This document shows positions 55,166 to 57,690 of a stretch of DNA of 64,000 nucleotides, one piece after another. Position 1 is the first letter of the stretch. Each line of letters starts with the position of its first letter. Source of the stretch: Brachyspira pilosicoli (GTDB lineage: Bacteria > Spirochaetota > Brachyspiria > Brachyspirales > Brachyspiraceae); assembly GCF_036997485.1 (NCBI RefSeq), contig NZ_JAWLPU010000002.1:124001-188000 (forward strand). The letters are read 5' to 3'. Made by a program: the position numbers and the translations under genes. Under the pieces are notes generated by a model. The model was given only the letters and a program-made list of their open reading frames with translations, made no database searches and was not told the DNA's origin.

Positions 55166-55869
55166 ATACAACTAAAATAATAATACATGGTATTGGAACA
55201 ATGGGAACTATATTAAAAGATATAGTTGAAAAAGATGATAGTTTAGAGTTAGCTGGTTTTGCTGATAATCTTACTAATGAAAAAGGTGATGTAATAGTAG
55301 ACTTTTCTCATTTTTCATTAATTGAAGATATGCTTAATTATGGAGTAAAAAATAATATACCTATTGTAATATGTACTACAGGTTATGATGATAAAATATT
55401 AGAAAAAATAAATGAAGCATCAAAAAAGATTCCTATAGTGCTTGCTTCAAATACTTCAATAGGTGTAACACTTATGAATGAGATAGTTTCAAAAGTTGCA
55501 AGTGTATTGAATGATTTTGATATAGAGATAGTAGAAACTCATCATAATAAAAAGATAGATTCTCCAAGCGGTACAGCTAAAACTTTATATAACACTATTA
55601 ATAACACTTTGAATAATGAAATGCATTTAGTTAATGGCAGAAGCGGTACGCACAAAAGAGAAAAAAAAGAAATAGGAATGCATTCATTGAGAGGCGGAAG
55701 CGTGGTTGGAGAGCATAGTGTTATATTTTATGGAGATGATGAGGCGATTGAGATTACTCATAAGGCTATGTCAAAAAAGATATTTGCTCATGGCTCTATT
55801 AAGGCTGCTAAATTCCTCGTTGGTAATAAATCTCCAAAACTCTACAACATGAAAGAAGTATTATCTTAA
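55162..55869 (+). CDS. dapB: 4-hydroxy-tetrahydrodipicolinate reductase
   Basis: 235 residues, shorter than the about 270 typical because the region between the first strand and the VDFSHFS motif is compact. N-terminal dinucleotide loop IIHGIGTMG, VIVDFS, VICTTGY, ASNTSIGVTLM, catalytic ETHHNKKIDSPSGTA and IGMHSLRGGSVVGEHSVIF identify it. It reduces the dapA product with NAD(P)H. The four-base overlap with dapA indicates coupling. A strong terminator follows. Confidence 0.95.
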   Translation: MNTTKIIIHGIGTMGTILKDIVEKDDSLELAGFADNLTNEKGDVIVDFSHFSLIEDMLNYGVKNNIPIVICTTGYDDKILEKINEASKKIPIVLASNTSIGVTLMNEIVSKVASVLNDFDIEIVETHHNKKIDSPSGTAKTLYNTINNTLNNEMHLVNGRSGTHKREKKEIGMHSLRGGSVVGEHSVIFYGDDEAIEITHKAMSKKIFAHGSIKAAKFLVGNKSPKLYNMKEVLS

Positions 55870-55880
55870 TTTTTAATAAT

Positions 55881-55928
55881 AAAGTTATGAGCATTATGAT
55901 AAAACTTATATTATGCTCATAACTTTTT
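55881..55928 (+). terminator. intrinsic terminator after dapB
   Basis: AAAGTTATGAGCAT pairs perfectly with ATGCTCATAACTTT, followed by TT. The 14-bp stem makes it one of the strongest terminators in the window. Confidence 0.88.
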
Positions 55929-55977
55929 AATATAAAAATTAATAATAAAAAATAATTAAAAATTGATTAATTTTTCC

Positions 55978-56005
55978 TTGACAAAATATAAAAATAAATT
56001 ATAAT
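55978..56005 (+). promoter_or_regulatory. sigma-70-type promoter for the amidinotransferase leader
   Basis: TTGACA, 16-base spacer, TATAAT. It predicts transcription from about 56012 and an untranslated leader of about 228 bases before the amidinotransferase ATG. Confidence 0.75.
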
Positions 56006-56055
56006 TCTCCTTAAAGAAATAAAAATAATATTTCTTCCTGTATTAGGATTACAAA

Positions 56056-56112
56056 ATGAAAAACAAATTAATCAATCTTTTTTCTTATTCATCTATCCTC
56101 TTCTTGAGGTGA
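56056..56112 (+). CDS. 18-residue small ORF in the amidinotransferase leader
   Basis: ATG with AGGA upstream, 18 codons (MKNKLINLFSYSSILFLR) and TGA. The last codons (ATC CTC TTC TTG AGG) are unlike the A/T-ending codons used elsewhere. GAGGTGATCC at 56106-56115, spanning its stop, is an exact 10-base complement of the conserved 16S rRNA 3' end (GGATCACCTC), yet no start codon follows it. Could be a regulatory leader peptide with a pausing site; translation is unproven. Confidence 0.4.
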   Translation: MKNKLINLFSYSSILFLR

Positions 56113-56239
56113 TCCTTAATTTCTTTTTCCAACTTTAATTTAAAATAATAAAAAATAGCAAATATAGTATAATAGTTTTTCTATTATGCATTATATTATA
56201 CATTTTATACTTTTATTAACTATTTAAGGAGATTTCTAT

Positions 56240-57379
56240 ATGAAAATCGTAAATTCTTGGAATGATTTTGACCCATTAAAACATGTAATAGTAGGTAGAG
56301 CTGACAACTGCTGTATAGCTCCATCAGAACCAGCTTCAAAAGCTAAAGTACCATTAAACAGTCCAATGAGAGGTATGACAGGACCAAGACCATTGGATAC
56401 TGTAGAAAAAGCAAATGCTCAATTAGATAATCTTTGTAAAATCTTAGAGCAGCATGGAGTAAAAGTTGATAGACCTACTCCTCTTCAATGGAATCAAGCA
56501 GTTGTAACACCTCATTTTATGACTGGAAGTATGTTTGGCTGTATGCCACCAAGAGATGTACTTTTAACTATTGGTAATGAAATAATAGCAGCTCCTATGT
56601 CTTTTAGATCAAGATATTTTGAGTATTTGGCTTATTCACCTATACTTAGAAAATACTTTGATGAAGACCCTGATTTTAAATGGATATCTGCTCCACGTCC
56701 AGAACTTGGAGATGCAAGTTATGATATGCATTATTTTGACGGAGATGTTACTGAAGAAGTTTTGCTTGAAAGAACTGCTAAGCTTCATATGGTTACAACA
56801 GAACATGAAATACTTTTTGATGCTGCTGATGTTATGAGAGTTGGTAAAGATTTATTCTGTCAGCATGGTTTAACTACAAACAGAAAAGCTATGGAATGGT
56901 TAAGAAGACAGTATCCAGACTTTAGAGTACATGCTGTAAACTTCCCTGGAGACCCTTATCCAATACACATTGATGCTACTTTTGTACCTTTAAGACCTGG
57001 TTTAATAATTAACAACCCTACAAGAAAACTTCCAGTTGAACAAAGAAAAATATTTGAAGCTAATGGTTGGGAAATTGTTGATGCTGCTAAACCTGCACAT
57101 GAAACTCCTCCGCCTCTTTGTTATTCAAGTGTATGGCTTTCTATGAACTGTTTGGTATTAGACCACAAAACAGTATTAGTTGAGGCAAGCGAAGTTTATC
57201 AAATGGAGCAAATGGATAAATTGGGAATGAATGTTATACCTGTACCATTTAGAGATGCTTATCCGTTTGGCGGCGGTTTGCATTGTGCTACTGCTGACGT
57301 TTACAGAGAGGGTTCTTGTGAAGACTACTTCCCTAAACAAGTGGATGACCCTACTTTAGTTACTTACAAAAAGTGGTAA
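56240..57379 (+). CDS. glycine amidinotransferase (AGAT)-like enzyme
   Basis: 379 residues. The sequence follows arginine:glycine amidinotransferase from end to end: VNSWNDFDPLKHVIVGRADN, LFDAADVMRVGKDLF with the Asp/Glu region, PYPIHIDATFVPLRPGLII with the catalytic His, SSVWLSMNCLVLD and FGGGLHCATADVYREG with the nucleophilic Cys. It moves the amidino group of arginine to an amine, with glycine giving guanidinoacetate. The related StrB-type enzymes act on aminocyclitols, so the acceptor is not certain. AAGGAG precedes the ATG. It forms its own transcript with a long leader. Confidence 0.88.
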   Translation: MKIVNSWNDFDPLKHVIVGRADNCCIAPSEPASKAKVPLNSPMRGMTGPRPLDTVEKANAQLDNLCKILEQHGVKVDRPTPLQWNQAVVTPHFMTGSMFGCMPPRDVLLTIGNEIIAAPMSFRSRYFEYLAYSPILRKYFDEDPDFKWISAPRPELGDASYDMHYFDGDVTEEVLLERTAKLHMVTTEHEILFDAADVMRVGKDLFCQHGLTTNRKAMEWLRRQYPDFRVHAVNFPGDPYPIHIDATFVPLRPGLIINNPTRKLPVEQRKIFEANGWEIVDAAKPAHETPPPLCYSSVWLSMNCLVLDHKTVLVEASEVYQMEQMDKLGMNVIPVPFRDAYPFGGGLHCATADVYREGSCEDYFPKQVDDPTLVTYKKW

Positions 57380-57480: not shown

Positions 57481-57550
57481 TTTTATTCAACTTTTTCCCG
57501 CAGCAAAAAGTTTTCGCCCTTCGGGCACGCTTCGCGAAAGTGCAAGTATT
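57481..57550 (+). repeat. interspersed hairpin element, family A, copy A2 with cassette
   Basis: TTTTATTCAACTTTTTCCCG, CAGCAAAAAGTT, then a GC-richer TTCGCCCTTCGGGCACGC insert and AAAGTGCAAGT. The 13-base CGGGCACGCTTCG (57522-57534) is shared with copy B1 at 17597-17609 in the opposite orientation. Confidence 0.8.
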
Positions 57551-57604
57551 CGAATTTTATATCTAAAAAATATATATAATGACACTATATGTTTATGTAT
57601 ATAC

Positions 57605-57690
57605 TTCATAAAAATGCAGTTCTTTTGCTTCTTTTATACCAATAAAAGAAGTGGGGTGCGGGGCAAAGCCCTGCAAATATTTTAATATAA
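57605..57690 (+). repeat. interspersed hairpin element, family B, copy B3 without cassette
   Basis: ATGCAGTTCTTTTG, then CTTCTTTTAT-ACCA-ATAAAAGAAG, a perfect 10-bp hairpin, then TGGGGTGCGGGGCAAAGCCC and TGCAAATATTTTAA. This is the empty form of the loop that holds a 47-base insert in B2. Confidence 0.8.

What the first reader, a model, noticed from the sequence alone, without database searches (positions are those of the whole stretch)
55978..56239. Amidinotransferase leader with an orphan 10-base anti-16S match
The 228-base leader holds an 18-codon ORF ending ...LFLR-stop. GAGGTGATCC across its stop complements the 16S 3' end over ten bases, longer than any ordinary Shine-Dalgarno here, but no start codon follows within range. 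The closing codons are rare types for this genome, as if this RNA sequence is what is selected. A terminating ribosome could stall there, and the final codon is arginine, the substrate of the downstream enzyme.
Basis: partly seen in the sequence, partly recalled or inferred. Interest (0 to 1): 0.5.

Follow-up and report, generated by a model that had tools for sequence, protein, structure and literature searches.

The report
Conserved arginine-ended leader peptide gene
Just ahead of an arginine-using enzyme gene in some gut spirochaetes sits a tiny gene whose last three codons are the same in every copy found and which travels with the enzyme gene, so it is probably a built-in switch for that enzyme; switches of this general kind are known.

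Summary
ORF 56056-56112 (MKNKLINLFSYSSILFLR-stop) lies behind a 12-of-12 consensus promoter and ahead of an arginine:glycine-amidinotransferase-like gene; GAGGTGATCC (56106-56115) occurs once outside the rRNA locus. Six of 26 genus genomes have the leader; all six keep the frame (18, 20 or 21 codons) and end TTG-AGG-TGA (Leu-Arg-stop), while fourfold sites of the enzyme gene are about 65% alike between the two leader groups. Leader and stand-alone enzyme gene co-occur 6 of 6, at two unrelated sites; no leader was found in the other 20 genomes, three of which carry the enzyme inside an arginine deiminase operon.

Best reading: a cis-acting leader peptide whose C-rich, G-poor message is a candidate Rho-loading site masked by a ribosome at the Arg-stop end, as proposed for Salmonella orf34/SpeFL. 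Rho, the signal and even translation are inferred. Shine-Dalgarno sequestration was modelled and not supported. A new member of a known kind; interest moderate.

The parts
55978..56005 (+). promoter, TTGACA-16-TATAAT
   Evidence: 12 of 12 consensus match; a TTGACA...TATAAT pair can be read upstream of the other five leaders too (sequences)
56014..56036 (+). 5' terminal A-U hairpin of the presumed transcript
   Evidence: minimum-energy fold of L002; hairpins near the 5' end are also predicted for other leaders; transcript start is assumed, not mapped
56056..56112 (+). leader ORF, 18 codons, MKNKLINLFSYSSILFLR-stop
   Evidence: ORF kept in frame in 6 leaders of two groups; only these 6 are strong hits of a sequence model in 26 genus genomes
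56056..56103 (+). C-rich, G-poor tract (10 C, 1 G in 48 nt), candidate Rho-loading site covered by leader translation
   Evidence: as extreme: 5 of 18344 coding-strand windows (one gene), 158 of 18344 antisense, 8 of 3372 intergenic; C/G before TTGAGGTGA in the six leaders 10/1, 10/1, 10/2, 11/3, 9/4, 9/3
56104..56112 (+). invariant TTG-AGG-TGA (Leu-Arg-stop)
   Evidence: identical in all 6 leaders
56106..56115 (+). GAGGTGATCC, complement of the 16S 3' end, without a start codon behind it
56226..56231 (+). Shine-Dalgarno AAGGAG of the amidinotransferase gene, 8 nt from ATG
56240..57379 (+). arginine:glycine-amidinotransferase-like gene (379 aa)
   Evidence: human AGAT 1jdx E 1.3e-87 over residues 4-364

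Best explanation
A cis-acting leader peptide gene (regulatory uORF) of a mobile amidinotransferase cassette. A ribosome translates the 18-21 codon ORF and stops at Leu-Arg-UGA; while it is there it covers a C-rich, G-poor stretch of message. If it leaves quickly or never arrives, that stretch is free and Rho ends transcription before the enzyme gene, which starts 119-137 nt further on; if it lingers at the Arg-stop end, because of the enzyme's substrate or product (arginine or ornithine) or of slow decoding of the rare AGG codon, the enzyme mRNA is completed. Shown by sequence: promoter, ORF, conserved end, co-occurrence with the gene, no intrinsic terminator found, a rho gene, C/G bias. Inferred: translation, pausing, Rho action, the signal and its direction. 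My split: regulatory leader ORF about 0.8; Rho as the effector about 0.45; arginine or ornithine as signal about 0.4. The confidence given is for the statement as a whole with the signal left open.
For: Frame-keeping and invariant LR-stop in 6 leaders against fourfold-site identity of 0.635-0.685 between the groups in the gene. Leader found in 6 of 6 genus genomes with a stand-alone gene and in 0 of 20 others, behind dapB in one group and behind an EamA-like gene in the other. Of the genomes without the gene, G025 has dapB, and 11 have the EamA-like gene directly followed by pta, with no TTGAGGTGA in the 1500 nt read. No intrinsic terminator. Rho over the curated cut-off in 3 of 3 genomes examined. 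C-rich, G-poor ORF: 5 of 18344 sense windows as extreme. Precedent in an ornithine/arginine-linked gene: Salmonella orf34 (SpeFL) also ends in a rare Arg codon next to UGA, with a CU-rich tract before the stop proposed as Rho site (PMC6386406, passages and part 1 of the Discussion). Rho-dependent termination was mapped in another spirochaete, Borrelia (PMC10319736, passages).
Against: No expression, ribosome or Rho data. In group B the C/G bias is weaker: 126 (C at least 9, G at most 3) to 261 (G at most 4) of 18344 sense windows reach it (group B ORFs are 54 nt before the end codons, the windows 48). Over 100-nt windows on both strands the own leader is not exceptional (7%). FSY lies 10 residues from the end in four leaders and 13 in two, which a distance-fixed sensor would not allow. 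Six leaders are only two lineages, linked by horizontal transfer. In Salmonella the Arg codon next to the stop was dispensable for arginine control. No leader is seen where the enzyme is in the deiminase operon, so the enzyme does not always need it. Five of the 20 genomes without leader are only 85-91% complete.
Confidence: 0.42

Rival explanations
1. tRNA-charging sensor: the single rare AGG codon before the stop is read slowly when arginine is short, and the position of that ribosome alone sets expression, as for rbfL of Staphylococcus aureus.
For: AGG is the same in 6 of 6 leaders although AGA is 81% of Arg codons in the window. rbfL is an 8-codon leader with AGA and AGG that senses arginine (PMC13009471, section 12).
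Against: Only one Arg codon; rbfL works by covering the start site of its gene, here 119-137 nt away. No terminator or sequestering fold for such a ribosome to act on was found.
Confidence: 0.17
2. Orphan Shine-Dalgarno site: after termination the 30S slides on, pairs with GAGGTGAT(CC) and stays without a start codon, shielding the mRNA from nucleases (STAB-SD) or from Rho.
For: 7-10 base complementarity in 6 of 6, no start codon behind it; STAB-SD of cry3A binds 30S without initiating and blocks RNase J1 (PMC4113751, passages).
Against: Outer bases of the match are not conserved; the motif is in frame at the end of an ORF, roughly 93-139 nt from the presumed 5' ends; the conserved TT before it adds nothing to 16S pairing; a local hairpin is predicted over it in all six. 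RNase J was not looked for.
Confidence: 0.12
3. Translational attenuation: the leader RNA hides the gene's Shine-Dalgarno site and a ribosome at the leader stop frees it.
For: UCCUUAA behind the stop can pair with UUAAGGA of the gene's site in G000 and G007 (sequence); in G007 the model gives that pairing a probability near 0.4.
Against: Modelled opening cost of the start region hardly changes with a ribosome on the stop: 5.2/5.3, 4.7/4.6, 7.0/7.8, 4.9/4.7, 4.2/4.2, 4.0/4.0 kcal/mol without/with, in the six; the pairing is bulged in G018 and not present in group B (sequence).
Confidence: 0.06
4. No regulation: the ORF is a chance or selfish short frame, or encodes a small peptide with its own function.
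For: No translation data; group B peptides are cationic (sequence).
Against: Co-occurrence with one gene at two sites and invariant end; 0 of 20000 shuffles, for each of two leaders, give such an ORF.
Confidence: 0.13

Closest known systems
SpeFL / Salmonella orf34 leader of speF (ornithine decarboxylase)
   Same: Short ORF in its own transcript ahead of an ornithine/arginine-linked enzyme; in Salmonella last codon a rare Arg, then UGA; CU-rich tract before the stop; no intrinsic terminator; Rho in the host
   Different: 34 codons with an Arg-Arg pair that does the arginine sensing; leader of about 516 nt that sequesters the gene's ribosome site; sequence relation not tested; here only Leu-Arg-stop keeps a fixed place
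TnaC leader of tnaCAB
   Same: Short peptide ending at UGA; no intrinsic terminator found here
   Different: TnaC captures L-Trp with the peptide and has a rut site behind the stop; neither is established here
rbfL, S. aureus
   Same: Short leader ORF with a rare AGG codon near its end, in an arginine context
   Different: rbfL overlaps the ribosome site of its gene; this leader ends 119-137 nt before its gene
STAB-SD of cry3A
   Same: Shine-Dalgarno-like sequence in a 5' leader without a start codon
   Different: STAB-SD lies close to the 5' end of the transcript; here the motif is the end of an ORF, roughly 93-139 nt in

Membership tests
cis-acting leader peptide (uORF) of a metabolic gene | short ORF with own promoter and ribosome site upstream of one gene | tested here: met
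   by sequence only; the ribosome site is weak (AGGA) in group A, AGGAG in group B
cis-acting leader peptide (uORF) of a metabolic gene | conserved with the gene across relatives | tested here: met
   6 of 6 stand-alone genes, 0 of 20 other genus genomes; not in the 3 operon forms
cis-acting leader peptide (uORF) of a metabolic gene | translation of the ORF alters expression of the gene in cis | not testable with these tools
   needs reporters
ligand-dependent arrest peptide (TnaC, SpeFL) | sensor residues at fixed distance from the stop (recalled as typical) | tested here: not met
   FSY begins 10 residues from the end in 4 leaders, 13 in 2; only Leu-Arg-stop fixed
ligand-dependent arrest peptide (TnaC, SpeFL) | ligand-induced arrest at the stop | not testable with these tools
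   needs toeprinting
ligand-dependent arrest peptide (TnaC, SpeFL) | Rho site exposed when the ribosome leaves | tested here: inconclusive
   C-rich, G-poor ORF in group A, weaker in group B; 100-nt windows not exceptional
ligand-dependent arrest peptide (TnaC, SpeFL) | sequence homology to SpeFL or TnaC | not tested
   no comparison run
classical codon-run attenuator | several codons for the sensed amino acid, plus an intrinsic terminator | tested here: not met
   one Arg codon per leader; 0 terminators in the own leader
translational attenuator (erm type) | gene's ribosome site hidden and freed by a ribosome on the leader | tested here: not met
   hardly any change in modelled opening cost in 6 of 6
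STAB-SD | 30S-binding motif without start codon that stabilises the mRNA | tested here: inconclusive
   motif present without start; stability not testable
known structured RNA (Rfam) | match at gathering score | tested here: not met
   0 matches in the window

The most novel reading that the evidence does not exclude
The last codons, the stop and a strong 16S-pairing site are fused on purpose: after peptide release the 30S moves about ten bases, clamps on GAGGTGAT without a start codon and acts as a parked roadblock against Rho or nucleases, so that the rate of termination at an Arg codon, not peptide-ligand binding, sets enzyme level.
Probability: 0.1. Interest if true: 0.72.

Novelty: new member of a known kind. 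Interest (0 to 1): 0.4.

Why it matters
It would be a leader peptide for an amidinotransferase in Brachyspira. A library search for Brachyspira with leader peptide listed 6 papers, none with either term in title or abstract (listing only), and Brachyspira with amidinotransferase listed none. Because cassette, empty sites and an operon form without leader all exist in close relatives, the question when a gene needs its own leader can be tested directly. The fused Arg-stop-Shine-Dalgarno end also gives a simple construct to ask what a 16S-pairing site does to a ribosome that has just terminated.

Tried and rejected
Rfam family: none in the window. Ten-base conservation: not met. Same leader elsewhere in the genus: an exact pattern gave the six leaders plus one other match in G018, not studied further; a sequence model gave the six at E 7.3e-11 or better and then weak hits from 0.0028 up (150 candidates scored per genome, list cut). 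I looked at the sequence of the three best of those (L178, L198, L179); none resembles the leader by eye. Leader in more distant amidinotransferase loci: 43 of 79 named loci scanned, some with little upstream DNA; only L021 (Brachyspira innocens) has it; a few ORFs elsewhere end in Arg and one (L069) holds FSY, without resemblance by eye. Shine-Dalgarno sequestration: not supported. Intrinsic terminator: none in 55850-56300. Exceptional C-over-G stretch with both strands and 100-nt windows: no; the coding-strand comparison is striking, intergenic windows reach it in 8 of 3372. TTGAGGTGA occurs five times in the genome; the other four do not look like leaders by eye. L013 (partial hit, 31 residues, G045) was left out of the ortholog counts.

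Papers: PMC13009471 passages and section 12; PMC6386406 passages and part 1 of 2 of the Discussion; PMC8429421, PMC10314930, PMC4113751, PMC10319736 and PMC7815308 passages only; others listing only. The paper on SpeFL and ornithine (Herrero del Valle 2020) was not read; it is known here through citing papers.

Full report
What is there. The window lies in a 2.72 Mb genome whose nearest relatives by the amidinotransferase are Brachyspira. The gene at 56240-57379 encodes a protein related over nearly its full length to human arginine:glycine amidinotransferase (1jdx, E 1.3e-87); HsvA and SxtG follow, so its exact acceptor is not certain. NCBIfam gives no family and Pfam only a sub-threshold arginine deiminase match. 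Upstream lie an amidohydrolase gene, dapA and dapB. Between dapB and the gene are a 12-of-12 promoter at 55978-56005 and an 18-codon ORF at 56056-56112.

Is the ORF real? Ten relatives in genus and family carry the gene over most of its length (an eleventh, partial match of 31 residues, L013, was dropped). With the window's own, 6 of these 11 have the ORF: G000, G007 and G018 (group A) and G016, G024 and G017 (group B). The peptides are MKNKLINLFSYSSILFLR, MKNKLINLFSYSSIFSILFLR and MKNKLINLFSYSSISSSLFLR in A, and MKNLKPKAKKFSYPISSLLR once and MKNLKLKAKKFSYPISSLLR twice in B. Lengths differ by whole codons only, all begin MKN, hold FSY and end LR-stop, and the final nine bases TTGAGGTGA are identical. 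In the neighbouring gene fourfold sites between the groups are 0.635-0.685 alike, and the two AGG codons of G018 are AGA in group B. The wobble G of TTG and AGG and the TGA stop could have been kept by chance with a probability of a few percent to a fifth (my rough estimate), so selection on the RNA letters beyond the peptide is suggested, not proven. Shuffled leaders never gave an ATG ORF with that end (0 of 20000 for each of two).

Linkage. Of 26 genus genomes, 9 hold the gene. Six hold it alone and have the leader. Three (G022, G015, G021) hold it inside an operon with ornithine carbamoyltransferase, carbamate kinase, a sodium:solute-symporter-like gene and arginine deiminase, and have no leader upstream of it; family models name the carbamoyltransferase, kinase and deiminase in G021 over their cut-offs, the symporter only below, and for the other two the names rest on likeness in the ORF lists (the deiminase also). 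The region ahead of that operon was read in G022 only and holds no such ORF. The deiminase was found in 3 of 16 genomes searched, the same three, and in none of the six leader genomes. The cassette of group B follows an EamA-like transporter gene in all three and is followed by pta in G024 (not read in the other two); that of group A follows dapB in all three with a MATE-like gene (name recalled) beyond it in G000 and G018. In 11 genomes without the gene the EamA-like gene is followed directly by pta with no TTGAGGTGA, and the dapB site of G025 is empty too; L126, L132, L141 and L145 are cut by contig ends and not counted. Five of the 20 genomes without leader are 85-91% complete. dapB is 65-67% identical between G000 and group B and the EamA-like protein 68-70% between G024 and G000 or G018, whereas the amidinotransferase is 97-98%: the gene moved between clades and took its leader with it. 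This is the strongest evidence that the leader belongs to the gene, and also the reason why six leaders count as little more than two lineages.

What the motif can and cannot do. The ten-base match to the 16S 3' end is found only in G000 and G007; the others have 7 or 8 bases. For a ribosome terminating at this UGA the motif is in the P and A sites, while the 16S 3' end meets mRNA upstream of the P site (recalled), so pairing cannot hold the terminating ribosome. It could act after a short forward slide, on a 30S subunit. No start codon follows. A small hairpin of 3-7 pairs closes over the motif in the predicted fold of each of the six, too small to weigh by covariation.

Mechanisms tested. 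No intrinsic terminator. No sequestration of the gene's start region that a ribosome on the leader stop would relieve: modelled cost nearly unchanged in 6 of 6 (assumed footprint from 18 nt upstream to 12 nt downstream of the end of the stop codon). The leader message before TTGAGGTGA holds 10 C and 1 G in 48 nt; 5 of 18344 coding-strand windows, from one of 48 genes, are as extreme, against 158 of 18344 on the antisense strand and 8 of 3372 between genes. The other leaders hold 10/1, 10/2, 11/3, 9/4 and 9/3 in 54-57 nt; 48-nt windows with at least 9 C and at most 3 or 4 G are 126 and 261 of 18344. Over 100 nt and both strands the leader is ordinary. Rho is encoded in 3 of 3 genomes checked. 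That leaves Rho-dependent termination as the effector with most support, by elimination and by analogy.

Analogy. Salmonella orf34 (SpeFL) also ends with a rare Arg codon and UGA, has a CU-rich tract before the stop that its authors propose as Rho site, and controls an ornithine enzyme; its arginine response runs through an internal Arg pair and not through the last Arg codon (PMC6386406). SpeFL and TnaC inhibit release at the stop (PMC8429421). rbfL of S. aureus senses arginine through rare AGA/AGG codons at its end (PMC13009471). The Brachyspira leader works most like these, but membership in the arrest-peptide class is not claimed: the distance of FSY from the stop varies.

Verdict. A real, conserved leader ORF; regulatory with good probability; mechanism open between Rho masking, tRNA reading and 30S docking. 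Library searches: Brachyspira with amidinotransferase, no paper; with leader peptide, 6 listed, not read; with Rho-dependent, one, unrelated by its title.

Noticed in passing
window 56240-57379; G000, G007, G018 against G016, G024, G017: The amidinotransferase is 97-98% identical between two clades whose dapB (65-67%) and EamA-like (68-70%) proteins differ far more, so the gene with its leader was probably exchanged horizontally within the genus.
   Followed up: partly
L111, L112, L023: In three relatives the amidinotransferase sits in an arginine deiminase operon with a sodium:solute-symporter-like gene; in L112 sarcosine/glycine reductase genes lie beside it. Run in reverse, guanidinoacetate plus ornithine would give arginine for the deiminase route and glycine for reduction: a possible guanidinoacetate fermentation. 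Inference only.
   Followed up: partly
L011 upstream of the amidinotransferase (G026): A glycine-reductase-like frame (by eye) with an in-frame TGA at a likely selenocysteine position ends just before the gene.
   Followed up: no
L143 (G007): The EamA-like transporter gene is broken (2 TAG, 4 TAA in the match).
   Followed up: no
window about 57490-57680: G+C-richer, repeat-like stretch (GCCCTTCGGGCACGCTTCGCG...) downstream of the gene, in an otherwise very A+T-rich intergenic region.
   Followed up: no
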